Source: Actinomycetota bacterium | GTDB taxonomy: Bacteria > Actinomycetota > Geothermincolia > Geothermincolales > RBG-13-55-18 | Direction: 5' to 3' | Assembly: GCA_014360655.1 (NCBI GenBank) | Contig: JACIXC010000003.1 | Span: forward strand, 1-64,000 | Length of the DNA: 64,000 nt | In this document: positions 10,246-38,108 of the stretch, one piece after another | How the letters are laid out: each line of letters opens with the position of its first letter | Position numbering within the stretch: the first letter of the stretch is position 1 | Made by a program: the position numbers and the translations under genes | The notes under the pieces: generated by a model | Seen by the model: the letters and a program-made list of their open reading frames with translations, nothing else | Databases searched by the model: none | What the model was told of the DNA's origin: nothing

Positions 10246-11112
10246 ATGAAAGCAGTTACAGGTCAAGAGATGCGCAGGCTGTTATGGGCCATCTCCCTGC
10301 TGGTGCTCCTACTGCTGCTGGCCATCGTCGCCTACTTCATCACCGACATCACCATCACCTACAACCGCAACATCGAGGACAACAGGGAGAAGGTCATCCA
10401 GGAATCGGTGCGCGGCCTGCAGGACATGAACTCCTTGATGGTCCTCAGCCGCGGAATCTCCCCGGAGCTCATGGAGGTCTTCAACAAGGACCTCTTAAAA
10501 GAGATGATGGGGGGTGACCTGGAGGCCCTTTACAGGGCCGGGGTAGCGGTGGGCCTCAACATGTATCCCATCGACTACGTGGGGTTCATCGCCGACGGCA
10601 AGTTGATGAGATACGGCACCCGGAAGGGGGTTTCCGTCGATACCACGGAGTTGCCCACGGAGCCGCCCGAGGGTGACTACCAGGTGCTGGACCGGCTGGG
10701 AGGGAGCGAGGGCTTCTTCATCTCCGTCTTCACGCCCTTGGACTTGAGCATATTGGGATTGGAAGAGGGCCCGATATACGTAAACATGATCGTCGACCGC
10801 AGCGAGGAGATGGAGGAGATCGAGTCCTACTTCCGCGACCAGCGCAACAGCCTGTTGGTAAGGCTGTTCATCGCCGCCGCCGTGGCGATCATCGCCTCCC
10901 TGCTTTTAACCACCTTCGGGCTGCGCCACTTCACGCGCAAGTACGTGGTGGACCCCATCGAGAAGATCAACCGCCAGGCCCGGGAGATCATGGAGGGGAC
11001 CTTCCGGGGCGAGGTGGAGGTGGACGAGAGAAGCGCCTACGCGCCCCTGCAGGGGCTGCTGCGCAGCGGCCACAAGGTGCTCAGCCGGATGGACGAGGAG
11101 TTGAAGGGATGA
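10246..11112 (+). CDS. Two-TM sensor-like protein ending in a HAMP domain (copy 2)
   Basis: A 288-residue tandem paralog of the preceding gene with the same TM1 - outer domain - TM2 - HAMP order and the same abrupt end after HAMP. The N-terminal 60 residues and everything after about residue 185 are almost identical to copy 1, while the outer domain differs more (for example MNSLMVLSRGISPELMEVF against TQSSLITGGFSPELMEVF). This pattern suggests duplication followed by divergence of the sensing region, with the ends kept alike by selection or gene conversion. The start at 10246 is chosen to match copy 1 and follows GGGGGCGGAG. Confidence 0.8.
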   Translation: MKAVTGQEMRRLLWAISLLVLLLLLAIVAYFITDITITYNRNIEDNREKVIQESVRGLQDMNSLMVLSRGISPELMEVFNKDLLKEMMGGDLEALYRAGVAVGLNMYPIDYVGFIADGKLMRYGTRKGVSVDTTELPTEPPEGDYQVLDRLGGSEGFFISVFTPLDLSILGLEEGPIYVNMIVDRSEEMEEIESYFRDQRNSLLVRLFIAAAVAIIASLLLTTFGLRHFTRKYVVDPIEKINRQAREIMEGTFRGEVEVDERSAYAPLQGLLRSGHKVLSRMDEELKG

Positions 11113-11645: not shown

Positions 11646-11818
11646 GGAGTCCCCTTAAACGTCATCGCGAGGAGCGGAGCGGCGAAGCGATCTCCTCCGG
11701 GCCTTGCCACCCCTCCCGGTACCCGTGCCTTTTGCCTTCTCCCGGGGAGATTGCTTCGTCGGCGCTGGCGCGCCTCCTCGCAATGACATTAAGAGAACGC
11801 GCCTCCTCGCAATGACGG
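11600..11818. repeat. Dispersed GTCATTGCGAG...GAAGCAATCTC repeats, direct and inverted
   Basis: Contains at least two rightward copies (11600-11631 and 11660-11700) and two inverted copies (about 11747-11788 and 11800-11818) of the short repeat with ends GTCATTGCGAGG and GCGAAGCAATCTC. The two ends are imperfectly complementary, so each copy can fold. Repeats of this form are widespread in bacterial genomes as REP/MITE-like elements. A further copy lies at 34072-34113. The rest of 11819-11962 holds no gene I can support. Confidence 0.75.
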
Positions 11819-11962
11819 GAACGGGGCGCAACGCCCTGGGGTCGCACCTCATCCGTTGCCTTCGTCAACACCTTTGTGCCTGACCCCACTTGTTGCCTTG
11901 GATGAACCATTCCCCGCGTGCCTGTGACCCCGTGCCCGGACCTCTTTGCCTTACCATTCGCG

Positions 11963-12496
11963 CTAGGAGAGGCCGAGGGCATCCAGTAAATCTCGCAAGC
12001 GGCCCAGCCTGTCCGCGTACCTCTCCTCGCGGTTAAGCGGGCCGCAATCCGAGAGTACGTGTTTCTCCTGCAGCAGCAGGAGGGCGAAGGCCAGGCATCC
12101 CCGCTCGCCGCACTCGCGGCAGTTGGTCCGGGGGAGCAGGCCGTATATGTCCAGGGGCTTGATCTTCACCTTCTTCTCGTAAACGGGCTCGATCTCCTCA
12201 CGGTGTTCTTGCACGTAGTTGAGCCGCTCCGCGAGCCAGGACAGCGTTTCCTCGGCGTCGGGGACATCGTCCGCCTTGGCGATGGTCACCTTGCGCGGGT
12301 AAACGGTCACCAAGCGCGGCCCCTTGGTGAAGGTCAGGGCGGGTCGCTCGGGCACGTAGGTGGCGTTGGCCAGCAGTGCGTTGAGGTAGGGAAGGAGCTC
12401 GCTCACGTCCACCGGGATGCGGGCGATGAGCCTTATCTTCGTCTCGTCGGCGAAGCATGGCTCCACGTGTTCTATGTCGATTCTTTCCAAGAACAT
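11963..12496 (-). CDS. Four-cysteine Fe-S domain protein (PF04060-like)
   Basis: A 177-residue protein. The N-terminal 110 residues form an alpha/beta domain (IRLIARIPVDVSELLPYLNALLANATYVPERPALTFTKG). The C-terminal part has the putative Fe-S motif C126-x2-C129-x4-C134-x16-C151 within LPRTNCRECGERGCLAFAL, as in the domain that opens acetyl-CoA synthase/CODH gamma-type subunits. A paralog with the same spacing is at 21748-22266 in the second arsenic operon. AGGAGG lies only one base before the ATG, so the TTG two codons later may be the true start. Role unknown; probably electron transfer or cluster-linked reduction. Confidence 0.8.
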   Translation of the reverse strand: MFLERIDIEHVEPCFADETKIRLIARIPVDVSELLPYLNALLANATYVPERPALTFTKGPRLVTVYPRKVTIAKADDVPDAEETLSWLAERLNYVQEHREEIEPVYEKKVKIKPLDIYGLLPRTNCRECGERGCLAFALLLLQEKHVLSDCGPLNREERYADRLGRLRDLLDALGLS

Positions 12497-12514
12497 GCCT
12501 CCTGCCTTTGCTGC

Positions 12515-12634
12515 CTTGTTCTCTTGTTATCTTGTTATCTTGTTATCTTGTTATCTTGCTCTCTTGCTCTCTTGCTCTCTTGCTCTCTTGTTGTCTTGCT
12601 CTCTTGCCGCCTTGCCGCCTTGCCGCCTTGACGT
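12515..12634. repeat. Fifteen tandem octamers of CTTGNNNN
   Basis: Continuous head-to-tail 8-bp units: CTTGTTCT once, CTTGTTAT four times, CTTGCTCT four times, CTTGTTGT, CTTGCTCT, CTTGCCGC three times, CTTGACGT. The CTTG half is invariant and the other half changes in blocks, as expected for slippage expansion followed by mutation. It lies between the DUF3343 gene and the start codon of the Fe-S gene downstream in the same operon, so it would be in the mRNA leader of the latter. Confidence 0.95.
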
Positions 12635-12672
12635 GACCGGCCGCGGATGCCGAGGTGCCGGGCCGCCCCCCG

Positions 12673-13773
12673 CTATTTCCTCCCTGCTCTCTTCAGGGTC
12701 CAGCCTCTCGGGGAGAGGACTCTTTCCGCCTCCCTCACCGACTCCTCCAGCCCGCCCGTGGTTCCTTCCAGGATAAGAAAATTACCCCCGCAGAGATCCC
12801 CGTCCCTCCACAACGCGCGCGGCAGGGGCAGGAAGGCGTCTCCCAGGACCAGCCGGAGGATGGCCACGGCCAGGCACAGGCGGTCCCGTTCCTCCTCCGT
12901 GACCTCCTCCCGGGGAAGCAGGGGAACCAGGTTCCCGCTGCCCACCGGGCCCGGACGGTTGTCCCGTAGGAAGACCATCTCGTCGGCCAGCTCCCCCAAA
13001 TCCAGCCGGAAAAGGTCGTCCCTCCGCAGGAGGACCTGGCGCACCCCGAAGTCCCTCACCAGCTCCCCCGCGAGACCGGGCAGCCGGTCGGCGTAGACCA
13101 CCACCACGATTCCCTCTCCCAGGACGCGGCGGAAATCCCCCGCCTCCCAGGGAAGGCCGTCCATCTCCCCCAGGTCCAGGACCAGGTGGACAAGCCCCAG
13201 GGAGGACATCTCCCTCACCGTCTCCTCCATGCGCCCGAGGTCCGCGTCAACATCCCCGTAATGCCCGACCGTATCCCCGTCCGGACCGGACCGGTCCCGG
13301 CGGCCGGCGATCCTCAGGACCGCCGCGGCGGTCATCCAGCCTCCGGAGAGGGTACGGGCCAGGTCCTCCGCCGCGCGCCGCACCAGCTCCTCCCCGGGGC
13401 CTGGCCGGACGAGAGCGGCGATGTCCTCGCGTTCCAGCTCGTTTTTTGTGGAAATCTTTACCAATACATTCCCGATGCCGGGGAACGCGGAAGCTTCCGA
13501 GGCGTAGGATCGCAGGATATCGGCAACGGCGTCCGTTTCCGCCTTCTCCGGGTGAAGCACGGCCTTGATCAGCACGCCTTTTTTCTCCAGGAATCCCGCC
13601 GCCGCCTCCCCTTCGTCGCCGGGAAGGGCGATGGCGGTCGTGCACAGCTCCCCCGCCTGCGGGGGCGCGGGAACCAGCCGCAAGCGGAATCCCTCCTCCT
13701 TGAGCAACGCCTCGGCGCGCAGCATGTGATGGGTGGAGGGAAAGACGATCACCGCCTCCCTGTCAACCGCCAA
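12673..13773 (-). CDS. DUF3343 domain fused to a radical-SAM-like barrel lacking its Cys motif
   Basis: A 366-residue protein starting at a TTG (13773), four bases after the previous stop codon and with AAGGTG upstream. Residues 1-75 match the DUF3343 "putative Se/S carrier" pattern (AVIVFPSTHHMLRAEALLKEEG, then LCTTAIALP). The remainder resembles the later strands of BioB-type radical SAM barrels (LVHLVLDLGEMDGLPW, GSGNLVPLLPREEVTEEERDRLCLAVAILRLVLGDAFLPLPR, GGNFLILEG), but there is no CxxxCxxC motif. The barrel call is a weak, pattern-based inference. Position in an arsenic/thiol operon suggests sulfur or selenium handling. Confidence 0.65.
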   Translation of the reverse strand: MAVDREAVIVFPSTHHMLRAEALLKEEGFRLRLVPAPPQAGELCTTAIALPGDEGEAAAGFLEKKGVLIKAVLHPEKAETDAVADILRSYASEASAFPGIGNVLVKISTKNELEREDIAALVRPGPGEELVRRAAEDLARTLSGGWMTAAAVLRIAGRRDRSGPDGDTVGHYGDVDADLGRMEETVREMSSLGLVHLVLDLGEMDGLPWEAGDFRRVLGEGIVVVVYADRLPGLAGELVRDFGVRQVLLRRDDLFRLDLGELADEMVFLRDNRPGPVGSGNLVPLLPREEVTEEERDRLCLAVAILRLVLGDAFLPLPRALWRDGDLCGGNFLILEGTTGGLEESVREAERVLSPRGWTLKRAGRK

Positions 13774-13777
13774 GTCT

Positions 13778-14158
13778 TCACCTTTCCGGTCCGACCTCTC
13801 CCGCCTGCAGGGCCTGTACCACATCCTCCATGTCGGGCACCCTGCCGTTGGCCACCAGCTTCCCGTCCACGGCCACGGCGGGGAGAACATAACGCAGGGA
13901 GAAGGCGATGCGCGAGGCGAAATCCTCCTCGCCCGCCTCGCGCAGGTAAGCGGCCAGCCTGCGCAGGCCTTCGGCGTAGGCTTCATACTGCTCCATGGCA
14001 TAGCGGATTATCTCCGCCGATGGATATTTCTCCGTTACCGCGTCCATGAACATCTCCAGCCGGGAGAGCTTCTCCGTGTCCCGCAGGAAGGCGGCCCCGG
14101 AACAGGCACAGGCCGGAGCGGGGATGAAGAACTCGATCCTCTTGACCTCCCCGGACAT
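13778..14158 (-). CDS. Thioredoxin-like / ArsD-like small protein
   Basis: A 126-residue protein. The N-terminus (VKRIEFFIPAPACACSGAAFL) gives a beta strand followed by a CxC pair instead of CxxC. The C-terminal half has the thioredoxin-fold cis-Pro region and glutaredoxin-like tail (YVLPAVAVDGKLVANGRVPDMEDVVQAL). The order of elements recalls ArsD metallochaperones, where cysteines near the N-terminus bind As(III), but the Cys arrangement differs. The start is placed at 14158 because GGAAGGAGG lies 7-8 bases upstream. It sits in the arsenic operon, between the ArsF/ArsG-like fusion and the DUF3343 gene. Confidence 0.7.
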   Translation of the reverse strand: MSGEVKRIEFFIPAPACACSGAAFLRDTEKLSRLEMFMDAVTEKYPSAEIIRYAMEQYEAYAEGLRRLAAYLREAGEEDFASRIAFSLRYVLPAVAVDGKLVANGRVPDMEDVVQALQAGEVGPER

Positions 14159-14349
14159 ATCCACGCCTCCTTCCATGGTAAGCCTCCCCGTTGATCATCC
14201 GCTCCTGAAACGCGCGGTTCAACCCTCCCGCCTGCGCTCCCGCCCGCACGAACCCAACGCCTACCACCCGTTCCACGACGCAAGGAACCTATAACCGCCC
14301 GCGCAACCTTGTACGACACCCCAGCTTTTGGTCCCCATCTCAACCCCCG

Positions 14350-15513
14350 TCACCATACCGTCTTCACCAGCAACACCAGGTAATACAGGCCCACTCCCAG
14401 GAAGACAAGCCCGGCTCCCTTGCGGAAATACCTTTCCCACCTCTGCACCTTCTCCGCATGCTCCGCCCACGCTCCCGCCCCGAAGGCGATGGCCAGGGCG
14501 AAAACGAATACCGGGAGGCCCGTGCCCAGGGCAAAGACGGCCGGGAGAAACACGCCCCCTCCCGGCGTTCCCAGGGCCAGCGGGATGAGCATGCCGAAGA
14601 AGAGCACCGCGCTGTAGGGGCAGAAGGAGAGCGCGAACAGCGCCCCCAGGGGCAAGGCCCCCAGCGCCCCCCGCCCGGATATCCTTTCCCCCAGGCCGGC
14701 TATGCGCCCTCCCCTGAAAAAGGAGAGGTTTATCACGTCCAGCATGACCAGCGAGACGAGGATTAGAAGCGGCCCCAGGTAATAGACGGAGGAGTTGCGC
14801 AGAAACCCCGATATGCGCACTACGTTGGCCCCCAGGTACACCAGCAGGACTCCCAGGGCCACGTAAGTGAAGGCCCTGCCCATGGTGTAGAGCGCACCTG
14901 CCACCGCTGCCCTCCCGCGATGCTCCAGATCCCTGGCGATATAGGCGACGGCGGCCAGGTTGGTGGCCAGGGGGCAGGGAGAGACGGCGGTGAGGAGCCC
15001 CAGCACCAGGGCGGCCAGGAGGGGGATCCCCGCCAGCGGGATGCCGGAATCCTCGGCGGGCTGGCTTCCCTCCAATGCCCGGTCCAGCTGGGCATGGATA
15101 TAGGCGATACAGCCCTCCCGGTCCTCCCACTTGAACCAGACCTCCTTGAGCTCCCGGAATTCTTCCCGGCCTCCCTCCCGGAGCACCAGGAAAAGCGATG
15201 AGCCCACGACCCCGTACTCGTCCACCCGCTCCCGGTTGGCGGGATCGTCGATGGCCAGCCTGGTATAGGGGACGCCCTCCAGGCCATGCCCGCGGTAGCT
15301 GGAAGCCGCCTCCTCGGCAAAGGAATCCACCTGCTCGCAGGAGACGCAGCGGAAACGGGGGTAGAAATAGACCAGCTCCACCGCACCTTTGTCCCCGCCA
15401 TCGTCCGCCGAGGAAATGTCCGAATGGTATCCCGGGAAGGCGGGGAGCATGACCAGCAATACGGCGATCGCGGCCGCAGCCACGCAGTAAGTCGACCTTT
15501 TCATGTTTATCAT
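14350..15513 (-). CDS. Fusion of an ArsF-like thiol domain with an ArsG/CcdA-like permease
   Basis: About 387 residues. After a signal/TM segment (to about residue 25), an outer thioredoxin-like domain has C56-V-S-C59 (VYFYPRFRCVSCEQVDSFAEEA), matching the ArsF-type proteins of organoarsenical efflux loci. From about residue 155 there are six or more membrane segments of the CcdA/DsbD family (LLTAVSPCPLATNLAAVAYIAR and LGALFALSFCPYSAVLFFGMLIPLAL), each half carrying a Cys-Pro. In known arsEFG loci, ArsF and ArsG are separate proteins, so here they appear fused. The ATG at 15513 shares its A with the stop codon of the upstream thioredoxin gene. Confidence 0.8.
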   Translation of the reverse strand: MINMKRSTYCVAAAAIAVLLVMLPAFPGYHSDISSADDGGDKGAVELVYFYPRFRCVSCEQVDSFAEEAASSYRGHGLEGVPYTRLAIDDPANRERVDEYGVVGSSLFLVLREGGREEFRELKEVWFKWEDREGCIAYIHAQLDRALEGSQPAEDSGIPLAGIPLLAALVLGLLTAVSPCPLATNLAAVAYIARDLEHRGRAAVAGALYTMGRAFTYVALGVLLVYLGANVVRISGFLRNSSVYYLGPLLILVSLVMLDVINLSFFRGGRIAGLGERISGRGALGALPLGALFALSFCPYSAVLFFGMLIPLALGTPGGGVFLPAVFALGTGLPVFVFALAIAFGAGAWAEHAEKVQRWERYFRKGAGLVFLGVGLYYLVLLVKTVW

Positions 15514-16073
15514 CACGACGGTGGAGAGGCTTGGCCTTCTCCCGAGATCAGCTTGTCAAGCAACGTCCTCATCTGGTCGGACCCTATAAGCCCCTCGTAC
15601 GCGTCCACCACCACGCCGTCGGTCTGGATAAAGAAACTGGTGGGGATGACCCTCACCTGGAAATAATCGCAGAGGGGAAGCTCGGCTTCGTCGTAGACGT
15701 CCACCACCACGAAGGATACGCGTCCCGCGTAATCCGGCTGCACTTCTGCGATGACCTTTTCCATCTCGATACAGGGGATGCACTGGTTGGAGTGGAAGTT
15801 CAGGAAAACGGGTTTTCCCTGCCGCAGAGACTCCTCGATAAGTTCCTGGGAGGGGGTCTTGCCGGCGGCCGAAAAACCGGCATCCGTCGTCTCCGCATCC
15901 TCCGACTTCTCCGCCGCCTGCGCCGGCGCGTTCTCCTTTACCTCGACATCCTCCCCGCACCCGCAGTCGGCCAGGGTTACCAGAAAAATACAGGTCACGA
16001 AGACCAGGGAAGCTATCAGTAATCTCTTCCCCGCCTTCCAGGCCTTTCTCCGCTTGCGCTTCTTCTCGGCCAT
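15513..16073 (-). CDS. Membrane-anchored thioredoxin
   Basis: A 186-residue protein. A basic N-terminus and one hydrophobic segment (residues 18-36) anchor it, followed by a flexible acidic linker. The thioredoxin domain starts near residue 75 with the active site C98-I-P-C101 (FHSNQCIPCIEMEKVIAEV) and the cis-Pro loop VRVIPTSFFIQTDG. It is probably an extracytoplasmic disulfide reductant fed by the CcdA-like permease encoded directly downstream, whose start overlaps its stop. A CGCG cluster (C37, C39) sits just outside the membrane. Confidence 0.88.
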   Translation of the reverse strand: MAEKKRKRRKAWKAGKRLLIASLVFVTCIFLVTLADCGCGEDVEVKENAPAQAAEKSEDAETTDAGFSAAGKTPSQELIEESLRQGKPVFLNFHSNQCIPCIEMEKVIAEVQPDYAGRVSFVVVDVYDEAELPLCDYFQVRVIPTSFFIQTDGVVVDAYEGLIGSDQMRTLLDKLISGEGQASPPS

Positions 16074-16128
16074 GCTTATAAGGCCCTCTCATACCGCGAA
16101 ACGTTCCGCCGCCCGGCGCGTACTCACT

Positions 16129-17307
16129 TCATTCCCTCACCGTCGCCGTTCCTTCCGCGGCCGCGGGCTCCGCGGCGGCGGGAGCCTCTTCCGGCCGGAA
16201 CCAGTGCTGCGTACGCAGGCATATCTTGACCAGCAGGAGCATCACCGGCACCTCGATGAGCACCCCCACCACCGTTGCCAGCGCCGCTCCGGAGGCAATG
16301 CCGTAGAGCACGGTGGCGGTGGCGATGGCCACCTCGAAGTGGTTGGAGGCGCCGATCATGGCCGAGGGCGCCGCGTCCCGGTAGTCCAACTTTATGAGCT
16401 TGGCCAGCCCGTAGCCGATCCAGAAGATGAGGTTGGTCTGGATGAAGAGGGGAACGGCGATGTAGACGATGGACATGGGCTGGTCGATGATGAGCTGCCC
16501 CTTGAGGCTGAAGAGGATGACCAGGGTCACCAGGAGGGCGATGATGGTGACGGGGGTCAGGTAGTGGATGAACCTTTCCTGGAACCACTCCATGCCCTTG
16601 CGCTTCAATATCCATTTTCTGGAATAATACCCCGCTACCAGCGGCAGGGCCACGTAGATGCCCACGGAGAGCACGATGGTCAGCCAGGGCACGGGCATGC
16701 TGTTCACTCCCAGCAACCAGCCTCCCAGCGGCGCGTAGAGCACCAGCATGGTGAGGGAGTTGATGGCCACCATCACCAGGGTGTGCCCGTCGTTCCCTTT
16801 CGCCAGGTAGGACCAGACCAGCACCATGGCCGTGCAGGGAGCGATGCCCAGCAGGATACAGCCGGAGATATAGGAGCGGTAGAGTTCCGGGCGCAGGACT
16901 CCGTCCACCATGATGCCGCCGGTGGTGGGCACGTAGTGGGTGCCGAGGTCGGCTCCCGGGATCCACCTCTTGAACACGAAGGCCAGGAAGAAGGTGGCGA
17001 TAGCCACCATGGTGAAGGGCTTGATGCACCAGTTGACGAAAAGGGTGAGGAGCACCGGCTTGGGGGTCTTGCCCGCCTTTATGACCTCGGCGAAATCGAT
17101 CTTCACCATGATGGGGTACATCATGAAGAAGAGGCAGACGGCGATGGGGATGGAGACCTGCGCCACCGACACCTTGTCCAGCGCCTCACCCATACCGGGG
17201 AAGGCCTTGCCCAGGAGTATGCCCGCGCCTATGCAGGCGATGACCCATATGGTGAGATACTTCTCGAAGAAACCCAGCCGCCTGGCTACCCTCGGCTGCT
17301 CCTCCAA
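16129..17307 (-). CDS. acr3: ACR3-family arsenite efflux permease
   Basis: A 392-residue, roughly ten-TM exporter that expels As(III). Family hallmarks are [24 protein letters not shown] (with the essential Cys), [11 protein letters not shown], and the [18 protein letters not shown] motif. I place the start at the TTG at 17307 because AAAGGAGGA lies about 8 bases upstream; residues further upstream in the open frame are not conserved-looking. The gene follows arsR, as is typical. The C-terminal tail is Ala/Glu-rich. Confidence 0.93.
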
Positions 17308-17510
17308 CCTCGCTCCTCCTTTGCTGCTTTTCTCTTGCGGGCTGCGCGGCAAGCTCCCCAGTGCGGCTCGCTGCGCCCGCCCTCCCGAGCAAGTTCTACC
17401 ATGCTCGCTTGCGGTCCGTGCCTTTCCTCCCAGCCATCACGTACTTCTACGCGTCCCCGACGCTCGCCGGCATCGCGTTTACGCCTCCGGGAGCAGGGAA
17501 CAGGGGCGTC

Positions 17511-17879
17511 TCATGTCCGGGCCGGCCTTTTCTCGCATTCCTCCCTGCGGGGATACGGCCGGTCTATCTTGTGGGTTCCGAGTATTTCCAGAAAAAGCCG
17601 GTTCAGCCTCTCCACCGCCTCCGGCACCAGCGAGTGATAACACCAGGTGCCGCTCTTGCGTGCCCTCACCAGGCCCACCTCCCGCAGCACGGAAAGGTGG
17701 TGCGAGGCCAGCGGCTGCGATATGCCCAGTTGCTCCTCGATATCGCAGACGCACTTCTCGCCCTGGAAGAGAAGGCACATTATTTTCAAGCGGTTCACAT
17801 CGCTGATGATCTTCAGCATGTCATGAAGCTCGTTGATCTCGCTCTTGCTCACGCACTCCGCCAGCTTCTTCGCGCTCAT
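17511..17879 (-). CDS. arsR: ArsR-family As(III)-responsive repressor
   Basis: A 122-residue winged-helix repressor. The metalloid site C43-V-C45 lies at the start of the recognition helix region (EKCVCDIEEQLGISQPLASHHLSVLREVGLV), matching the ELCVC-type As(III) site. ATG at 17879 has GGAGG upstream. It heads the operon leading to acr3 and the thiol proteins. A palindrome lies in its own promoter (17902-17923), so autorepression released by arsenite is likely. A third possible ligand, C80, is present (GTWCYHSL). Confidence 0.93.
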   Translation of the reverse strand: MSAKKLAECVSKSEINELHDMLKIISDVNRLKIMCLLFQGEKCVCDIEEQLGISQPLASHHLSVLREVGLVRARKSGTWCYHSLVPEAVERLNRLFLEILGTHKIDRPYPRREECEKRPART

Positions 17880-17899
17880 CTCCGACCTCCATATAGTCG

Positions 17900-17928
17900 C
17901 ATATATAAACCCAGGTTAATATAAACAA
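17900..17928 (-). promoter_or_regulatory. arsR promoter with embedded ArsR operator
   Basis: On the minus strand, TTGTTT (17928-17923) and TATATG (17905-17900) are separated by exactly 17 bases, a plausible sigma-70-type promoter 21 bases before the arsR ATG. Most of the spacer is an imperfect palindrome with 10-base arms TATATTAACC and GGTTTATATA around TG (17902-17923; 9 of 10 pairs match). Repressor bound there would block polymerase directly. Confidence 0.7.
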
Positions 17929-17995
17929 TAATTTATCATTCATCAAGGAGCGATCTTTATCGCACCGAACCCCGCGCGCTTGTTCTCCCCGGGTA

Positions 17996-18583
17996 TCAGC
18001 CCTCGACCTCGCCGAGGGCTTCGTCCGGCGCCTCGTAGCCCTGCTTGAAAAAAACCCTCCCGATGACCTCGCTCAGGGCCACTACCACCACCAGGGTGGC
18101 CAGGTATCGCACCAGGGTGAACTTCCAGCCCAGGAATTGGAACTCCATCAACTCCGCCGGGAGTTTTATGCACGCCCAGGCGGAGAGGAAGATGATGATA
18201 TTGGCGACCTTGGCGCCCTTTTTCAGCAATACCGCCGCCAGCGGGAACGCCACGTAGAGGGGCCCCATGGGAATGCTTCCCAGGATGAACGAGAGGACGA
18301 CTCCTTTGACCCCGGATTCCTCGCCGAGAAACCTGACGATGAACTCCCTTTCCACCCACACGCTAACCAAGCCCATGATGATGAACACCGCGGGAAGGAT
18401 CATGGCCATCTCCTTGAAGTATTCCCAGGCCACATGGCGCGCCGTACCGCCTTTCTCGGGGAACACGACGACCAGGACGATGAAGACGGGAATAAGAAGG
18501 AAGAGGATGGCGTAATCCCACCGTATTCTCTCCCTTATGCTTCTCTTCCTGCCGTTTGCCACGGCATCGGCCTTTTCGTTCAC
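17996..18583 (-). CDS. Split permease, second half (ArsP-like)
   Basis: A 195-residue membrane protein with four to five TM segments. The core motif is SFILGSIPMGPLYVAFPLAAVLLKKGAKVANIIIFLSAWACIKLPAELMEFQFLG. The gene starts at a GTG (18583) that overlaps the stop of the preceding half-gene by four bases (GTGA), so both are made together. Both halves share a G..xP...AFPLA..LL..GA signature, as though each were one repeat of an ArsP_1/DUF318-type permease. A paralogous pair is at 36531-37638. The substrate is unknown; a metalloid or an organoarsenical is inferred from context. Confidence 0.8.
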   Translation of the reverse strand: MNEKADAVANGRKRSIRERIRWDYAILFLLIPVFIVLVVVFPEKGGTARHVAWEYFKEMAMILPAVFIIMGLVSVWVEREFIVRFLGEESGVKGVVLSFILGSIPMGPLYVAFPLAAVLLKKGAKVANIIIFLSAWACIKLPAELMEFQFLGWKFTLVRYLATLVVVVALSEVIGRVFFKQGYEAPDEALGEVEG

Positions 18584-19065
18584 CTTATGATCACCCCTAT
18601 CACCACGGCGATGGCCACGGCGGCGAGGAAGCTCAAGGCGTTCCTGGCGACGGCGAACCTCTTTCCCAGTTCCTTGATCTCCAGGGGCAGGAACACGAAG
18701 CCGACCATGGTCAGGGTGGTGATGAACGCCGCCGTGGCCATGATCCCGGCCCCCATGTCCAGCATGGACTTGGCCAGGGGGAAGGCGATGATGACCGGGA
18801 TGAAGAGCACCGCACCCAACAGGGAAGCGATGGCCACCCCCAGGGCACCGCTGTTCTTGCCGATCACCTGGGCGATCCACTTGGCGGGAACGAAACCGAT
18901 CATCAGGCCCACCACCAGGATGATGGCCAGGATGCCGGGGAGCAGCCGCATGAAGCCCTTGTAGGCGACGCGCAACGCGGCCAGCGTTTTCTTCCGGTCC
19001 TTGATCACGCTCAGGAGCAGCAGTACGCCCGTCAGGACGAGGATGACGAGGGTTGTGAGATCCAC
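18580..19065 (-). CDS. Split permease, first half (ArsP-like)
   Basis: A 161-residue membrane protein of four to five TM segments. Motifs: LLPGILAIILVVGLMIGFVPAKWIAQVIGKNSG and GAVLFIPVIIAFPLAKSMLDMGAGIMATAAFITTLTMVGFVFLPLEIKELGKR. It is read first and is coupled to the second half through a GTGA overlap. It ends cleanly, with no sign of a recent frameshift: the paralogous pair elsewhere in the window has the same break point, so the split is ancestral. Confidence 0.8.
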   Translation of the reverse strand: MDLTTLVILVLTGVLLLLSVIKDRKKTLAALRVAYKGFMRLLPGILAIILVVGLMIGFVPAKWIAQVIGKNSGALGVAIASLLGAVLFIPVIIAFPLAKSMLDMGAGIMATAAFITTLTMVGFVFLPLEIKELGKRFAVARNALSFLAAVAIAVVIGVIIR

Positions 19066-19106
19066 TCAGTCCACCCCTTTCCTTCCTTTCCCGCCGCCCG
19101 GATCGT

Positions 19107-19430
19107 TCACAGCGCGTCTTCCAGGAAGTTGACGCAGGCGTCCTCGGGCGGGAAGATGCTCGCGGCCACTTCCACCGCCTTGAGCGTCGCCGCCGGCACG
19201 ATGCAGGAGTTGCGGCAGCAGTGCTCGGATGCGGCGCGGTACACCGCCGTGTCCCGCATGGGGAGGGTCATCTCGCTCCCCGCGTTGACTTCCTTGAGCT
19301 CCTCCGCCATCTCCGCGATGTGCTCGCAGGAGGTCTCGAAGGAAAGGGACACGGTGGTGAGGGTGTTCTTCCGCGCCGTGATCACCGTCTCCTTGCCGCA
19401 CTGCCCTCCTTTTACGAATACGATGGCCAT
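19107..19430 (-). CDS. Small cysteine-rich protein (DUF6951-like)
   Basis: A 107-residue soluble protein beginning AIVFVKGGQCGKETVITA. Cysteines at about positions 11, 35, 70, 71, 75 and 98 (SFETSCEHIAEMAEEL, EHCCRNSCIVPAATLKAVEVA) could bind a metal or metalloid. The opening and the later Cys block resemble the DUF6951 family, from memory rather than a search. It lies between the split-permease pair and the DGC protein, 41 bases from the former. Confidence 0.6.
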   Translation of the reverse strand: MAIVFVKGGQCGKETVITARKNTLTTVSLSFETSCEHIAEMAEELKEVNAGSEMTLPMRDTAVYRAASEHCCRNSCIVPAATLKAVEVAASIFPPEDACVNFLEDAL

Positions 19431-19457
19431 CCTTTTCCCTTCCCGCCCTGCCGCGCG

Positions 19458-19844
19458 CTATTCATGCCTCGCCGCCAGGGCCTCCTCGATGCGCCGCTTG
19501 ACGTCCGCCTTGATCCTCTCCTTCTCCGCCTCATCGTAATCGAGCACCGGTGCCTTCTTAACCCCGTAGTCCTCCACCATCTCCACCCGGATGTCCGGCT
19601 TGCGGCCGGAGTGCTCCTCCACGATCTTGGAGCAGCACATCACCGGGCAACCCTCGATGATCACGAAGAGCTCCGCCCCCGCGATCTTGTTCAAGCCGGT
19701 GTCCTTGTCGATGGCCACCGCGGGCAGGCATACCAGGTGGTAGTCCTCGTTCTCCTTCACCAGCTCCGTGGCCACCGCCCCCGCCAGCTGCCCGGTATTG
19801 GCGGCCCCGTAGCAGGTGGCTATGACTACCCTGAACTCGGCCAT
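19458..19844 (-). CDS. DGC-domain putative zinc-binding protein
   Basis: A 128-residue protein. C10 in VIATCYGAANTGQLAGAVATELV and the later FVIIEGCPVMCCSKIVEEHSG match the DGC family, whose name comes from a conserved Asp-Gly-Cys (here EGC). Four cysteines near C73-C79 could form a metal site. The start at 19844 follows AAAGGAGGAG. DGC proteins are commonly found beside ArsP-type permeases and ArsR regulators, as here. The biochemical function is unknown. Confidence 0.75.
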   Translation of the reverse strand: MAEFRVVIATCYGAANTGQLAGAVATELVKENEDYHLVCLPAVAIDKDTGLNKIAGAELFVIIEGCPVMCCSKIVEEHSGRKPDIRVEMVEDYGVKKAPVLDYDEAEKERIKADVKRRIEEALAARHE

Positions 19845-19877
19845 CGCGAATCTCCTCCTTTCAGGTCCCAAACGGCC

Positions 19878-20957
19878 TTACTTCGCGAACATCCCGAAGA
19901 TGTACCCCGTGCCCATGGCGAAGAGGCACACCAGCAGGATATACGTCCCGGCCTTCTTGAATCCCATGATGCGGATGAGCACGATCATGCTGGGCAGGGA
20001 GAGCGCGGGCCCCGCCAGCATCAGGGCCAGGGCCGGCCCCTTGCCCATTCCCAGCTCCAGGAGTCCCTTGACGATGGGCACCTCGGTGAGGGTGGCGAAG
20101 TACATCAGGGCCCCGGATACCGAGGCGATGGCGTTGCCTCCGATGGTGTTTCCGCCCACGTAGCGGGCGATGACGTCGGAGGGGATGAGCTCCTTGACCA
20201 CGCCCACCAGGAAGACCCCGACGAGCAGCACGGGAAGGATCAACTTCACCATGCGCCAGGTCTCAAGGAACCAGGTCTTTACCTCCTCGCGCGTGAACCA
20301 GCGCTTCACCAGGTAGATGAGCAGGGCCACCAGGAGCACCTCGCCCGCGTACTTGACGATGGTGGGCATCTTCGCCGTGCCGTAGACCAGGATGGCGATG
20401 AGGACACCGAAATAGATGAGGTTCTGGTAGCCCGGCCTTACCCGGCTCCCGTCGTCGTAGGCGAAGGCCTCCGCGTCCTCCGCCGCCCGCACGCGCCTCT
20501 CCTCCTCCTTGTGGAAGACGGCGGCCATGATGAGCCCGATGAAGAAGGCGAAGCCCACCGCCCCGATGATGCGCGCCACCCCCAGGTCGTACCCCAGGAG
20601 GTTCATGGAATAGGTCATGGCCAGGATGTTGATGGCCGGCGAGGAGTAGAGGAAGGCGACGGCCGGCCCCAGGCCCGCCCCCTTCTCGCGTATGCCCGTG
20701 AACAGTGGGAGCACGGTGCAGGAGCACACGGCCAGGATGGCCCCGGAGACCGAGGCCACGGAGTAGGAAAGGAACTTGTTCGTCCTGGGGCCGAAGTAAC
20801 GCATGACCGCGGCGGTATTCAGGAAGGCGATGATGGCCCCTGCGATGAAGAAAGCCGGGATAAGGCAGAAGAGGGTGTGCTCGGCCACGTACTCGACGAG
20901 CGTCCGCAGGCCCTCCATCATCAAGCCGCCGAAGGTTATCGCTGCCAATTCCACCAC
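19878..20957 (-). CDS. ArsP_1/DUF318-family permease
   Basis: A 359-residue permease with about eight to ten TM segments in two halves. The first half has the Cys-rich motif GAILAVCSCTVLPLFTGIREKGAGLGPAVAFLYSSPAINILA. The second has VSGALMYFATLTEVPIVKGLLELGMGKGPALALMLAGPALSLPSM. ArsP members export trivalent organoarsenicals; others in the family have unknown substrates. The start is a GTG (20957, with a second GTG at 20954) and no strong ribosome-binding site, so the N-terminus could be shorter (Met-Met at residue 14). Confidence 0.85.
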   Translation of the reverse strand: MVELAAITFGGLMMEGLRTLVEYVAEHTLFCLIPAFFIAGAIIAFLNTAAVMRYFGPRTNKFLSYSVASVSGAILAVCSCTVLPLFTGIREKGAGLGPAVAFLYSSPAINILAMTYSMNLLGYDLGVARIIGAVGFAFFIGLIMAAVFHKEEERRVRAAEDAEAFAYDDGSRVRPGYQNLIYFGVLIAILVYGTAKMPTIVKYAGEVLLVALLIYLVKRWFTREEVKTWFLETWRMVKLILPVLLVGVFLVGVVKELIPSDVIARYVGGNTIGGNAIASVSGALMYFATLTEVPIVKGLLELGMGKGPALALMLAGPALSLPSMIVLIRIMGFKKAGTYILLVCLFAMGTGYIFGMFAK

Positions 20958-21319
20958 TTCCTTACTTCCTCACCTAACGCACTTCCATGTAAAACCATGG
21001 TATTCGTACCGGGCTGCCGGCTCGCGCCTTCCGATTCCGGCATCCCTCCACGCTCCTTCCCGCGGGCCTTCCCGCCGGCGCACCGGCTGCCCCCTCGACC
21101 GCCACGGGTCACCCACGTCTCTCCCTGCGACCTCCCGGATCCGGCGACGAAAACTCCCCTTCCCCGCCGCTGACCCTTTAGGTCTTTAGGGGATTCCGAG
21201 TCCCGGGCTCGGCTCCCGCTTCGCTTTCCCCGGGGCCCTTCGCCAGATGCCCCCGCCCTGGAGAACCTGGGCGGCGGACCGCAGGGCTTACGGAATAGGA
21301 GTGGGAGTGCCTGCGGCCC
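20958..21319. other. Intergenic stretch (362 bp) inside operon B
   Basis: GC-rich, with several short inverted repeats (for example around 21190-21240, CCGAGTCCCGGGCTCGG) but no T-rich tail in the operon direction. No coding frame is convincing. It separates the CxxC mini-thioredoxin gene from the permease gene and might hold an internal promoter or processing site. Confidence 0.4.
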
Positions 21320-21553
21320 TCAGGCCTTGAGCCAGCCCTCGATCTCCTTCTTGGAGGGTACCTTTCCCTTGCAGACCACCTTGCCGTCTACGACCACCCC
21401 TGGCGTGGTGAGGACGTTGTACTTCATGATCTCGCTCATCTCCGTGACCTCGTCCACCCGGGCGTCCAGGCCCAGCTCCTCCACCACCTCGCGGATGGCC
21501 TCCTTGGTGGCCTTGCACTTCTTGCATCCCGGTCCCAGTACCTTGATCTCCAT
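21320..21553 (-). CDS. Mini-thioredoxin / redox-active disulfide protein
   Basis: A 77-residue thioredoxin-fold protein with active site C10-K-K-C13 (MEIKVLGPGCKKCKATKEAIREVV) and the cis-Pro TTPGVVVDGKVVCKGKVPSKKEIEGWL. Such small CxxC proteins are regular neighbours of DUF318/ArsP permeases. The start at 21553 follows GGAGGTGAAAGAC; the Met five codons earlier is poorly placed. It probably works as a thiol reductant or metalloid carrier for the permease. Confidence 0.88.
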   Translation of the reverse strand: MEIKVLGPGCKKCKATKEAIREVVEELGLDARVDEVTEMSEIMKYNVLTTPGVVVDGKVVCKGKVPSKKEIEGWLKA

Positions 21554-21747
21554 GTCTTTCACCTCCATCGTCTGCAGGTAATCTCCGTTCTTGGTCCCCG
21601 ATGACTTCCATGTCGCCGGCTCCCATCAACCGGCAGCATAACCGGCCTGTTTACCGCGGTCGATCATCACGTCAACCCCCGCCGCTCGTTGACGCCGCCT
21701 CCTTATCTCCTTCCCTTGGGATCTCCTTCCCTCCGTGCCTTCTTCTC

Positions 21748-22266
21748 CTACAATCCGAGTTCGCGCAGCTTGTCCAGTCTCTCCTCCATGCCCGCCTCCA
21801 GGAGGGGAGGGCAGTCCTCCACGCACCTTTCCCCTTCGATCAACCGGGCGGCGAAGGCCATGCACGAGGGCAGTCCGCACTTTCCGCAGTTGGTGCGGGG
21901 CAGGCAGCGTAGGACGTCCAGCAGCTTGGGAGGGACCCGCGTGGTATGGTCGGGCTCTATACCCTCTCTTCGCTCCCATATGTCGTTGAGCCGCTCCACG
22001 GCCTTCTTCGCGATCCTCTCGGCGTGAGCGCGATCCTTGAGGTTGTTGATACTGACGACGTTCTCCCGCAGGGCGTACTTGTGAGCGCCCTCCCGCCACA
22101 CGATGGTGGGCACCTTGGGGTCGTAGAAGGCGTTCCTCACCTCCGCGTTGACGTAGGGCATCACCGGCCCCAGGTCGGCATCCGTCTTCACCCTGGCCAC
22201 CCAGATCGGCGACCCGGGGTCGCAGGGCGGCGAGAACATCTCCAGCTCCCAGTCGCTTATCAGCAT
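21748..22266 (-). CDS. Four-cysteine Fe-S domain protein (PF04060-like), paralog
   Basis: A 172-residue paralog of the protein at 11963-12496. An alpha/beta N-terminal domain is followed by C127-x2-C130-x4-C135-x16-C152 in CLPRTNCGKCGLPSCMAFAARLIEGERCVEDC. The identical spacing and LPRTNC lead-in show common ancestry. Each of the two arsenic operons carries one copy. AAAGGA lies upstream of the ATG. An electron-transfer role for organoarsenical or thiol chemistry is a guess. Confidence 0.8.
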   Translation of the reverse strand: MLISDWELEMFSPPCDPGSPIWVARVKTDADLGPVMPYVNAEVRNAFYDPKVPTIVWREGAHKYALRENVVSINNLKDRAHAERIAKKAVERLNDIWERREGIEPDHTTRVPPKLLDVLRCLPRTNCGKCGLPSCMAFAARLIEGERCVEDCPPLLEAGMEERLDKLRELGL

Positions 22267-22482
22267 CTCCGGCTTCCTTTCGCTCCTTCGTCTTTATCCG
22301 CCTTGATACGCCGCTCAAATGCGCGCCCGCCCATGACCCGCGCCGTCCTCGGCAGGTCCGTCAGCACCGTACCGGGGGACAGTCCGTCTACCCTCGCCAT
22401 GGGCTCCATATCAAGTCGGGAAAGCAGGGTCCCCGCTCCGCTTCTCCCGCCGTCACGGGCATTCGCCCCGCGCACCAACCGG

Positions 22483-22701
22483 TCACTCCCCGTCACCTTT
22501 CTTCCCTGTGACCATCTCACCCTGGTTGGGATGGTAGGACTCCTCGAAAACCGGCACGCAGTGAGGCAGATCGGCCTCCTTGACCCTCTTTTCCAGCACC
22601 TCGCGGATGAACTTCAAGGCCTCGTCCCGGTCGTCGTCGGCCAGGATGCGCTTTATCCAGATGAGCTCCTCCTCCCCCAGGGACACGGCTATCCTTCTCA
22701 T
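22483..22701 (-). CDS. Small RHH-like protein, co-transcribed with arsR
   Basis: A 72-residue protein whose ATG (22701) overlaps the arsR stop (ATGA) and is preceded by GGAGGAGCGAGGAG. An N-terminal strand (RRIAVSLGEEEL) is followed by helices (IWIKRILADDDRDEALKFIREVLEKRVKEA), as in ribbon-helix-helix proteins, but no family is certain. A paralog (MKRISLILDDDALIWLKRVI) is encoded divergently at 23348. It ends in a hydrophilic tail with one Cys (LPHCVPVFEES). Confidence 0.65.
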   Translation of the reverse strand: MRRIAVSLGEEELIWIKRILADDDRDEALKFIREVLEKRVKEADLPHCVPVFEESYHPNQGEMVTGKKGDGE

Positions 22702-23111
22702 CTCCTCGCTCCTCCCTTGCCCGAAACGCTCTTCGCCCCTCGCGAAAGAGCAGCCGGAGCCGGTGTACAGCACGCATCGCCATTCTCCCCTTCACGCCTC
22801 CCGCGATGGCCGAGGTAGCGCAGGAACGCTTCCACGACCCGGTCCAGCTTATCCTCCGCCACCGCGTAGTAGGAGGAGGTGCCCTCCTTGCGCACCCGCA
22901 GCAACCCGTCCTCCCTGAGCACGTTCAGGTGGTGGGACGCGAGCTGCTGGGAGATGCCCAGCTCCTTTTCCACCTCGCAAACGCATCTCTCTCCCCGCAG
23001 GAGCAGGCACATGATGCGCAGCCGGTTGGGGTCGGAGAGGATCTTCAGCTCCTCCGCCAGCTCGATTATCTCCGGATCGGCCACGCACCTCAGGGTTTCC
23101 CTTCCAACCAT
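22698..23111 (-). CDS. arsR: ArsR-family repressor (second copy)
   Basis: A 137-residue winged-helix repressor with the metalloid site C43-V-C45 (ERCVCEVEKELGISQQLASHHLNVLREDGLLRV). A C-terminal tail adds a vicinal C114-C115 pair (GDACCTPAP), which may supply further ligands, as in ArsR types that use C-terminal cysteines. It is clearly related to the arsR at 17511. Start at 23111 with GGTGGAG upstream. It heads operon B and overlaps the next gene by four bases. Confidence 0.9.
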   Translation of the reverse strand: MVGRETLRCVADPEIIELAEELKILSDPNRLRIMCLLLRGERCVCEVEKELGISQQLASHHLNVLREDGLLRVRKEGTSSYYAVAEDKLDRVVEAFLRYLGHRGRREGENGDACCTPAPAALSRGAKSVSGKGGARR

Positions 23112-23124
23112 GGCCTCCACCTTC

Positions 23125-23165
23125 ACCAACAATGGTTTGTACTTATAACTATTTGTATTTTATCC
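23125..23165. promoter_or_regulatory. AT-rich divergent control region of arsR (second copy)
   Basis: The only AT-rich stretch in the 236-bp gap between arsR and the divergent small gene at 23348. On the minus strand it contains TACAAATAGTTATAAGTACAAA, with a direct TACAAA repeat around a TTATAA core. Its position just before arsR suits an ArsR operator and promoter, but no good palindrome or clean -35/-10 pair is visible. Confidence 0.4.
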
Positions 23166-23347
23166 CGCCTCACCCCCATGTCAATGACCAAGCCCATTCC
23201 TGATGACCTGCCCGCCGGGGAAGGCTCTTCGGCATGTCGCAATGTGGATGTTCTCCGTTCCCCTCCGCGCCCTTTCCCGCGTGATCGCCCTCTCCCGCGT
23301 GATATTACGGTCAAGTACTCGCGCCTGATGGTCGAGGAGGAAGCGGC

Positions 23348-23551
23348 ATGAAAAGGATCTCCCTGATCCTTGACGATGACGCATTGATATGGCTCAAGCG
23401 CGTGATCACCGACCAGGATGGCGAGGAAGCGTCGAGATTCTTGAACGACGAGGTCCTGAAGCCCAGAACAAGGGAAGCGGAATGGCCTTCCGGACTGCGG
23501 AGGACCTTCGACGCGGGAGGGCCTCCGGGACAGCTGGGCGCCCCATGTTGA
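23348..23551 (+). CDS. Small RHH-like protein, divergent paralog
   Basis: A 67-residue protein starting after GAGGAGGAAGCGGC. It aligns with the small protein at 22483 over its first 45 residues (MKRISLILDDDALIWLKRVITDQDGEEASRFLNDEVLKPRTREAEWP against MRRIAVSLGEEELIWIKRILADDDRDEALKFIREVLEKRVKEADLP), then ends differently. The unrelated C-terminus may reflect an old frameshift, so it could be decaying. It is transcribed away from arsR. Confidence 0.5.
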   Translation: MKRISLILDDDALIWLKRVITDQDGEEASRFLNDEVLKPRTREAEWPSGLRRTFDAGGPPGQLGAPC

Positions 23552-23729
23552 CCCGGTTCATCGCGGCCTCGGCGACCGGACCGGCTTTTACCCCCTACCG
23601 GTGAGGCGGGTTCATCCTACGACCTCCAACACGGTAATGCCGGCCCGGCCATATCCGGCCCCGGTCGGGAACCACTTCCCCCGGTTCGCTTTGCCCGTAC
23701 GGCACCTGGATACCGAGGACCCTCGCGCC

Positions 23730-37118: not shown

Positions 37119-37152
37119 GTTCATCATCTCCTTCCCCTCGGGGTCGCGTAGC

Positions 37153-37638: not shown

Positions 37639-37643
37639 GGCCG

Positions 37644-38078: not shown

Positions 38079-38108
38079 GGCTCTCTCCCGCATAAACCGA
38101 ATGAACTT

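What the first reader, a model, noticed from the sequence alone, without database searches (positions are those of the whole stretch)
11963..23551. A two-operon arsenic/thiol-redox island with several unassigned parts
Two leftward operons, each headed by an ArsR with a CVC metalloid site, carry an ACR3 exporter, a full ArsP-type permease, a split permease, three CxxC/CxC thioredoxin-like proteins, a CcdA-like electron carrier, two paralogous four-Cys Fe-S proteins, a DGC protein, a DUF6951-like Cys-rich protein and a DUF3343/barrel protein. ACR3, ArsP and ArsR are known arsenic functions. The combination with Fe-S and Se/S-carrier-like proteins suggests a system that reduces, thiolates or otherwise converts arsenic species before export. 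That conversion step is inference.
Basis: partly seen in the sequence, partly recalled or inferred. Interest (0 to 1): 0.75.

Follow-up and report, generated by a model that had tools for sequence, protein, structure and literature searches.

The report
Arsenic-export island with sulfur-redox module
Two neighbouring arsenic-resistance operons in an uncultured actinobacterium carry, besides ordinary arsenic pumps, a conserved set of unstudied proteins (including a disabled relative of a radical enzyme and a cross between an archaeal DNA-binding fold and an iron-sulfur protein) that probably handle sulfur or electrons for arsenic detoxification.

Summary
In detail: two leftward operons, each behind its own ArsR, lie at 11963-23132. 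The full-length permease belongs to a broad family and is not proven ArsP. Gene order is conserved among relatives of the same class: FeS1 with ArsE in 14 of 14 loci, CxC with DUF3343-barrel in 9 of 9.

Three unassigned parts now have likely identities. (1) The "barrel" is a HydE-like radical-SAM fold without the CxxxCxxC motif, fused to a DUF3343 Se/S-carrier-like domain. (2) The four-Cys proteins join a TATA-binding-protein-like domain to the [4Fe-4S] domain of corrinoid/iron-sulfur protein. (3) The CxC protein is a divergent ArsD relative. Outside the class, the same four-Cys family lies beside a cysteine desulfurase in 3 of 3 loci found; in one class genome it shares a reading frame with DUF3343.

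Best reading: arsenic export plus a persulfide/electron-handling module. Arsenic thiolation is possible but unproven; electron supply to ArsE/ArsF is the main rival. New variant of a known kind.

The parts
23136..23184 (-). promoter-like site (TTGACA-16-TAAAAT) followed by ACAAAT...GTACAAA operator-like half-sites upstream of arsR1
   Evidence: a like promoter stands before arsR1 in 11 of 11 aligned loci, of 13 with an arsR1 match
22698..23132 (-). ArsR1 (CVC); start uncertain, ATG at about 23111 likely because the TTG at 23132 adjoins the operator-like site
   Evidence: PF01022 E 2.6e-16; NF033788 over cut-off
22483..22701 (-). SMALL1, conserved 72-aa protein with a single HCVPVFE cysteine motif; no Pfam family
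   Evidence: beside FeS1 in 12 of 14 loci; also in L134 outside the class
21748..22266 (-). FeS1: TBP-like domain (about 6-96) plus CFeSP-type [4Fe-4S] domain (about 115-172)
   Evidence: PF04060 53.3 bits
21320..21568 (-). ArsE/MTH895-family thioredoxin-like protein (CKKC)
   Evidence: TIGR00412 108.8 bits, cut-off 62; beside FeS1 in 14 of 14 loci
19878..20957 (-). PF03773 (ArsP_1) superfamily permease
   Evidence: 265.5 bits, cut-off 32.3
19458..19844 (-). DGC-domain protein
   Evidence: PF08859 70.6 bits, cut-off 27
19107..19430 (-). DUF6951 Cys-rich protein
   Evidence: PF22263 84.5 bits, cut-off 27; beside DGC in 5 of 5 loci
18580..19065 (-). half permease A (PF03773-like)
   Evidence: 25.3 bits, under the 32.3 cut-off; 33.4 bits, over it, in the genome search
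17996..18583 (-). half permease B (PF03773-like), overlaps half A by 4 bases
   Evidence: 41.3 bits
17511..17879 (-). ArsR2 (CVC)
   Evidence: PF01022 E 3.6e-19; NF033788 over cut-off
16129..17352 (-). ACR3 arsenite exporter (start codon uncertain)
   Evidence: TIGR00832 402.4 bits, cut-off 282.8
15513..16073 (-). TrxL, thioredoxin with an N-terminal membrane/signal segment (by eye) and CIPC
   Evidence: PF13098 E 1.9e-10
14350..15516 (-). ArsF-like domain (CVSC) fused to ArsG-family membrane domain with SPCPL and SFCPYSA cysteines
13778..14176 (-). CxC protein, divergent ArsD relative with CAC in place of the vicinal CC
   Evidence: hhalign against ArsD, probability 96.9 over 102 columns; unrelated alignments 0.1-1.4
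12673..13773 (-). DUF3343 (Se/S-carrier-like, Cys44) fused to a HydE-like barrel without CxxxCxxC
   Evidence: PF11823 62.1 bits
11963..12496 (-). FeS2, paralogue of FeS1
   Evidence: PF04060 38.8 bits

Best explanation
This is an arsenic-resistance island of two ArsR regulons. SHOWN by sequence: operon A carries ArsR, a small conserved protein, FeS1, ArsE, a PF03773 permease, DGC, DUF6951 and a split permease; operon B carries ArsR, ACR3, a thioredoxin with a membrane segment, an ArsF-ArsG fusion, an ArsD-like CxC protein, a DUF3343-HydE-like fusion and FeS2. INFERRED mechanism: the ArsD-like and ArsE proteins bind trivalent arsenic on cysteine pairs. The thioredoxin-ArsF-ArsG set carries reducing equivalents at the membrane and/or exports arylarsenicals. 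The DUF3343 cysteine carries a persulfide sulfur, handed on with the help of the low-potential [4Fe-4S] protein FeS2, with the dead HydE barrel as docking or binding scaffold. The sulfur goes either to arsenic (thiolation before export) or to keep the thiol and Fe-S partners of the pumps working under arsenic stress. Which of these two the sulfur serves is not decided.
For: Arsenic families over curated cut-offs. Conserved pairs: FeS1-ArsE 14 of 14, barrel-CxC 9 of 9, barrel-FeS2 8 of 9, the miss at a contig end. Full-length relatives of the FeS family found outside the class lie beside a cysteine desulfurase in 3 of 3 loci, of two different types: NifS/IscS-like in L134 and L135; TIGR01977, over cut-off, in L122. 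L134 also holds ACR3 (54% identity, cut by the contig end), DGC and SMALL1. DUF3343 and FeS2 share one reading frame in L069, where the barrel is lost. Published comparative genomics ties DUF3343 to Sec lyase and YedF and proposes a Se/S chaperone (passages of PMC5322559). A distant family member sits with ArsE-family and ArsC-like genes in L091.
Against: No desulfurase was found in the 64-kb window or in the other arsenic loci by tblastn with three desulfurases, and no sulfurtransferase family appears among the island proteins. Many class members have FeS-family genes without island genes beside them (neighbours read by eye in 8 such loci), so the family is wider than arsenic. The three outside-class loci are few, two of them on short contigs of fragmented genomes. 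The barrel is dispensable in L069. No chemistry was measured.
Confidence: 0.4

Rival explanations
1. Electron-supply reading: FeS1 and FeS2 are dedicated low-potential electron donors for the thioredoxin-like ArsE/ArsF/TrxL proteins, which reduce pentavalent (methyl or nitroaryl) arsenicals; the permeases and ACR3 export the trivalent products. DUF3343-HydE is an accessory binding protein.
For: The C-terminal domain matches the CFeSP [4Fe-4S] domain (E 1.5e-12; Z 9.3 over 54 residues), whose role in reductive activation is recalled. FeS1 is beside ArsE in 14 of 14 loci. ArsE and ArsG families are over cut-off. ArsF keeps CxxC in 3 of 3 rows that reach it; the paired membrane cysteines of ArsG are kept in the rows that reach them, 3 of 3 and 4 of 4. 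An arsenate-reductase-like gene adjoins an FeS gene in L091.
Against: Does not explain the cysteine-desulfurase neighbours and the DUF3343 in-frame fusion. No flavin, nicotinamide or ferredoxin-reductase family appears among the island proteins. ArsF scores just under its cut-off.
Confidence: 0.3
2. Repair reading: the Fe-S, DUF3343 and DGC genes restore or protect iron-sulfur and thiol proteins damaged by arsenite and do not touch arsenic.
For: Beside desulfurases outside the class; FeS-family members without island neighbours are common in the class.
Against: Does not explain the strict pairing with ArsE and with the ArsD-like CxC protein.
Confidence: 0.2
3. Selenium or another metalloid (Sb, Te, Hg organometals) is the true substrate, as in the selenocysteine-assisted organometallic (SAO) system.
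For: selD is over cut-off in 27 of 31 class genomes, 25 of them with an in-frame TGA. NCBIfam's SaoE and SO_0444 Cu/Zn models hit the permeases here, under cut-off.
Against: The island genes read through without in-frame TGA. G017 has the CxC-barrel-FeS2 module but no selD over cut-off, although that genome is only 82% complete. ACR3 and ArsG are arsenic families over cut-off.
Confidence: 0.1

Closest known systems
ArsEFG organoarsenical system (Chen, Zhang and Rosen 2019; seen only as a reference title, details recalled)
   Same: ArsE family and ArsG family proteins over NCBIfam cut-offs, ArsF-like domain just under
   Different: ArsF and ArsG are one protein; ArsE is in the other operon; Fe-S, DUF3343 and ArsD-like genes are added
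HydE, radical-SAM maturase of [FeFe]-hydrogenase
   Same: residues 95-363 align with HydE at Z 15.6, rmsd 3.5, 246 residues, tied within 1 Z with ThiH (15.4) and biotin synthase (15.3); HydE leads the profile search and Foldseek
   Different: no CxxxCxxC in any of 8 copies; DUF3343 fused in front; HydE itself is not over cut-off in any of 31 class genomes
Corrinoid/iron-sulfur protein large subunit
   Same: [4Fe-4S] domain, E 1.5e-12
   Different: no corrinoid or barrel domain; a TBP-like domain in front instead
TATA-binding protein (archaeal)
   Same: profile match to the second half of M. jannaschii TBP, E 3e-5; model Z 11.7, rmsd 2.0 over 88 residues
   Different: about 90 residues, half the size of TBP; near-neutral to acidic charge; in a bacterial Fe-S protein; DNA binding unknown
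ArsD arsenic metallochaperone
   Same: full-length profile match, probability 96.9; best PDB chain by profile is 3ktb, an ArsD, but only at E 0.052
   Different: CAC instead of vicinal CC, an insert before the last strand, under Pfam cut-off
DUF3343-Sec lyase-YedF selenium/sulfur clusters (Lin et al. 2015, PMC5322559; passages seen)
   Same: DUF3343 with its conserved Cys; a desulfurase next to the FeS partner outside the class
   Different: in an arsenic operon; fused to a dead HydE-like barrel; no desulfurase in the island

Membership tests
ACR3 arsenite exporter | NCBIfam TIGR00832 over cut-off | tested here: met
   402.4 bits, cut-off 282.8
ArsEFG | ArsE-family protein (TIGR00412) | tested here: met
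   108.8 bits, cut-off 62; the model also covers MTH895-type proteins
ArsEFG | ArsG-family permease (NF040495) | tested here: met
   252.9 bits, cut-off 200
ArsEFG | ArsF over NF040494 cut-off | tested here: not met
   56.4 bits, cut-off 60
ArsEFG | three separate contiguous genes arsE-arsF-arsG (recalled) | tested here: not met
   ArsF-ArsG fused at 14350-15516, ArsE at 21320-21568
ArsEFG | reduction and export of nitroaryl arsenicals | not testable with these tools
   needs a bench assay
ArsP | PF03773 over cut-off | tested here: met
   265.5 bits, cut-off 32.3
ArsP | ArsP-specific subfamily or methylarsenite export | not tested
   no ArsP-specific model appeared in the NCBIfam scan; SaoE and SO_0444 models were under cut-off
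SAO system (SaoE) | NF040736 over cut-off | tested here: not met
   100.9 bits, cut-off 325
Radical SAM / HydE | CxxxCxxC cluster motif | tested here: not met
   absent from 8 of 8 barrel-bearing copies
Radical SAM / HydE | HydE-type radical-SAM fold | tested here: met
   Foldseek HydE ranks 1-5; Z 15.6 for HydE, tied with ThiH 15.4 and biotin synthase 15.3, unrelated TIM barrels from 9.4 down; model confidence only moderate (mean pLDDT 63, pTM 0.53)
Radical SAM / HydE | NCBIfam HydE model TIGR03956 | tested here: not met
   no NCBIfam family for the barrel protein at E 0.01; no match in G000 at E 0.001
DUF3343 / PF11823 | Pfam cut-off and conserved Cys | tested here: met
   62.1 bits, cut-off 25; Cys44 in 9 of 9 rows
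PF04060 Fe-S proteins | four cluster cysteines and cut-off | tested here: met
   53.3 and 38.8 bits, cut-off 23; four Cys invariant in 23 of 23 rows
CFeSP large subunit | corrinoid-binding and TIM-barrel domains (recalled) | tested here: not met
   172-aa protein, only the [4Fe-4S] domain matches
TBP | two tandem repeats of about 90 residues | tested here: not met
   the model spans only residues 6-96 in TBP matches
TBP | TBP repeat fold | tested here: met
   Z 11.7, 88 residues, but the aligned TBP residues run from 3 to 177, over both halves; profile E 3e-5 to residues 109-187; a second profile gave only E 0.054
ArsD | Pfam PF06953 cut-off | tested here: not met
   16 bits, cut-off 27; weak hits in 6 of 9 members, best E 0.0082
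ArsD | vicinal cysteine pair CC | tested here: not met
   CxC in 9 of 9 rows

The most novel reading that the evidence does not exclude
A persulfide relay (DUF3343 cysteine, dead HydE scaffold, TBP-fold [4Fe-4S] protein) that places sulfur on arsenic held by an ArsD-like CxC chaperone, so that a thiolated arsenical is exported: an enzymatic arsenic-thiolation pathway, with the TBP-fold/Fe-S family as a general partner of cysteine desulfurases.
Probability: 0.15. Interest if true: 0.85.

Novelty: new variant of a known kind. Interest (0 to 1): 0.55.

Why it matters
Thioarsenicals are important arsenic species in sulfidic waters, and I know of no dedicated enzyme that makes them in cells (both recalled; not searched exhaustively). 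The island names a small conserved gene set with which to test this. Separately, it points to a bacterial protein family that joins a TATA-binding-protein-like domain to a [4Fe-4S] domain and keeps company with cysteine desulfurases, and to a radical-SAM-type barrel conserved without its cluster. Both are concrete structural targets. If the electron-supply rival is right, it still gives a ferredoxin-like donor for ArsE/ArsF, whose source of electrons is, as far as I recall, unclear.

Tried and rejected
Selenocysteine: the in-frame TGA in the FeS1 copy of L017/L080 is at an Arg position, not a Cys, and the ACR3 match beside it is in two short pieces, so it looks like a decaying copy. Selenium specificity: selD is nearly universal in the class, so it discriminates poorly. 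Barrel as HydE maturase: HydE is not over cut-off in any of 31 class genomes. Plasmid collection: six protein searches found only distant hits or none; one record, Acetoanaerobium, was useful. Archaeal hits of the search for related loci (L018-L020) are CFeSP- and ferredoxin-like proteins without the TBP-like part, by eye. A shared operator for both operons: the sites before arsR1 and arsR2 look different (the L083 row of the arsR2 set was turned over by the aligner and is not used). TBP-like DNA binding: the domain is near-neutral or acidic (15 K+R to 17 D+E in FeS1, 12 to 19 in FeS2), a weak argument against it. Literature: full-text searches for these combinations gave no paper, or none that looked on point from title and abstract. 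One search was badly set (the word arsenic alone matched) and tests nothing.


Full report
WHERE. The window lies in a 2.97-Mb, 99.96% complete genome. The nearest named records found with FeS1 are unnamed Actinomycetota MAGs and MAGs of Candidatus Solincola and Candidatus Geothermincola. The class name Geothermincolia is recalled.

WHAT IS THERE. Sixteen genes run leftward from 23132 to 11963. Operon A: ArsR1, a 72-aa protein (SMALL1), FeS1, ArsE, PF03773 permease, DGC, DUF6951 and two half permeases. Operon B: ArsR2, ACR3, TrxL, ArsF-ArsG, CxC, DUF3343-barrel, FeS2. Gaps range from -4 to 362 bases. The only two promoter-like sites in 11800-23700 lie before the two arsR genes. As a count this is what shuffles give, but a like site stands before arsR1 in all 11 loci aligned, of 13 with an arsR1 match (L081 and L085 were not aligned).

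ARSENIC FAMILIES. ACR3, ArsE and ArsG are over curated cut-offs; ArsF is just under. Its membrane part keeps the SPCPL (3 of 3 rows) and SFCPYSA (4 of 4 rows) cysteines and its ArsF part a CxxC (3 of 3 rows), so electron transfer across the membrane, as in CcdA/DsbD, remains possible beside export. The full permease is placed in the broad PF03773 family only.

CONSERVATION. Relatives of FeS1 that cover nearly its whole length are in 24 of 31 class genomes (my count; G006 has only an FeS2-type copy). I fetched 35 stretches around FeS and barrel matches and located the window's genes by tblastn. With the window included, and counting loci where the first gene is present: FeS1 (at least 60% identity) with ArsE 14 of 14 (ArsE identity 76% or more in 13, 41% in L085); with SMALL1 12 of 14; with ArsR1 12 of 14; ArsE with ArsP 11 of 13; ArsP with DGC 8 of 11; barrel with CxC 9 of 9; barrel with FeS2 8 of 9; FeS2 with CxC 8 of 11; CxC with ACR3 6 of 10; DUF6951 with DGC 5 of 5, with half permease A 4 of 5. 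L069, where only the DUF3343 part matches, is counted as a barrel locus. Misses at contig ends: L071, L072, L074, L081, L092, L101-L103; the other misses are real absences or rearrangements. The DUF3343-barrel protein at near full length is in 8 of 31 class genomes; no other of the 396 Actinomycetota genomes sampled, the 31 included, has a match over more than about 115 of its 360 model positions. DUF3343 alone is widespread there.

THE BARREL. A profile of nine relatives finds HydE first among PDB sequences, best E 0.0034; the eight HydE sequences listed are variants that look like one protein, so they are not independent, and PylB follows at 0.63. The AlphaFold2 model is of moderate confidence (mean pLDDT 63, three-row alignment), yet Foldseek puts HydE at ranks 1-5, then biotin synthase and HydG. 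VIA-align gives HydE Z 15.6 (246 residues, rmsd 3.5), tied with ThiH 15.4 and biotin synthase 15.3, with unrelated TIM barrels from 9.4 down. So the radical-SAM fold is firm; HydE as nearest kin rests on the profile. None of the 8 barrel-bearing copies has CxxxCxxC. The DUF3343 part is better conserved (51-76% identity to the window) than the barrel (35-52%; 7 pairs). In L069 the barrel is lost and DUF3343 is in one open frame with FeS2; FeS2's own ATG is kept, so separate translation is also possible there.

THE FOUR-CYS PROTEINS. The FeS1 model is good (mean pLDDT 88). Residues 6-96 match TBP (Z 11.7, rmsd 2.0, 88 residues to M. jannaschii TBP; the aligned TBP residues span both of its halves), and 115-172 match the CFeSP [4Fe-4S] domain (Z 9.3). 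Foldseek alone gave no hit under E 0.001 but listed CFeSP first and TBP next. By sequence, a 23-row profile finds CFeSP (E 1.5e-12) and the second half of TBP (E 3e-5); a second, 12-row profile finds TBP only at 0.054 over 32 positions; Pfam lists no TBP family for FeS1. The TBP relationship is thus well supported as a fold and only moderately as homology.

THE CxC PROTEIN. hhalign against six ArsD sequences from the phylum (of eight loci fetched; the other two were not picked up by my motif filter): probability 96.9 over 102 columns. Seven other alignments from this study give 0.1-1.4, and 20 column shuffles 0.1-0.6; ArsE gives 94.1 but over 27 columns only, as true ArsD does with ArsE (93.0 over 31).

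OUTSIDE THE CLASS. Three full-length FeS-family loci were found: L134 and L135 (two genomes of another class of the phylum) and L122 (Acetoanaerobium noterae, Bacillota). All three have a cysteine desulfurase directly upstream on the same strand: NifS/IscS-like in L134 and L135 (best model TIGR03402, under its cut-off; NF002806 just over its cut-off), and TIGR01977 over cut-off in L122. All three FeS proteins are nearer to FeS2 (33-39%) than to FeS1 (27-30%). L134 also has SMALL1 directly downstream, DGC, a glycosidase-family gene and a truncated ACR3 (54% identity) on its 5.5-kb contig. Inside the class no desulfurase lies near the arsenic loci; the one in L095 belongs to a YedE-TusA-desulfurase set about 5 kb from a standalone FeS gene (YedE and TusA named by eye). 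Lin et al. 2015 (PMC5322559, passages read) link DUF3343 to Sec lyase and YedF and suggest a Se/S chaperone, while noting that DUF3343 also occurs in organisms without selD.

READING. The links FeS-desulfurase, FeS-DUF3343 and DUF3343-Sec lyase point to sulfur (or selenium) handling; the links FeS-ArsE and CxC-barrel tie that module to arsenic. I therefore prefer a persulfide/electron module serving arsenic detoxification (0.4), with pure electron supply (0.3), repair (0.2) and another metalloid (0.1) as rivals. Thiolation of arsenic is the bold form of the first (0.15). Nothing here shows chemistry.

LIMITS. Genome sampling outside Actinomycetota was not possible beyond the one genome-contig scan, the plasmid collection and three archaeal genomes searched for PF04060 only. 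The two outside-class genomes are fragmented. Standalone FeS genes in the class (L087-L090, L093-L100) have none of the window's other island genes beside them by tblastn, apart from a weak ArsR match in L097; neighbours were read by eye in eight of these twelve loci (L087, L089, L093, L095, L096, L098, L099, L100) and are mixed. So arsenic is not the family's only context. The original ArsEFG paper was seen only as a title, and the two selenoprotein-operon papers were not held; a review's passages were read instead.

Noticed in passing
window 36531-37647: A second pair of PF03773 half permeases, with a probable PadR-type regulator gene (by eye) just beyond at 37644-38093.
   Followed up: no
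window 23348-23551 (+) and L075, L077, L082: A divergent paralogue of SMALL1 without its cysteine lies across from arsR1 in several genomes.
   Followed up: partly
L080 (G001) and L017: A decaying copy of the island: FeS1 has an in-frame stop and ACR3 matches only in two short pieces.
   Followed up: partly
L091 2269-3556: ArsE-family, arsenate-reductase-like and FeS-family genes in a row in another family of the order: a different arsenic layout with the same Fe-S family.
   Followed up: partly
L018 4333-4803, L019 9983-10456, L020 2234-2704: Archaeal 156-157-aa proteins that, by eye, join a CFeSP-type Fe-S domain to a ferredoxin-like part; no TBP-like part.
   Followed up: no
G000:C9:47753-48019 (L136): The genome's own standalone DUF3343 gene lies beside a 2-hydroxyglutaryl-CoA dehydratase D-component gene.
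   Followed up: no
31 class genomes: selD is over cut-off in 27 of 31 genomes, 25 of them with one in-frame TGA, so the class probably uses selenocysteine.
   Followed up: no
window 9151-11112: Two tandem paralogous proteins (287 and 300 aa) with very similar N-terminal membrane segments, by eye.
   Followed up: no
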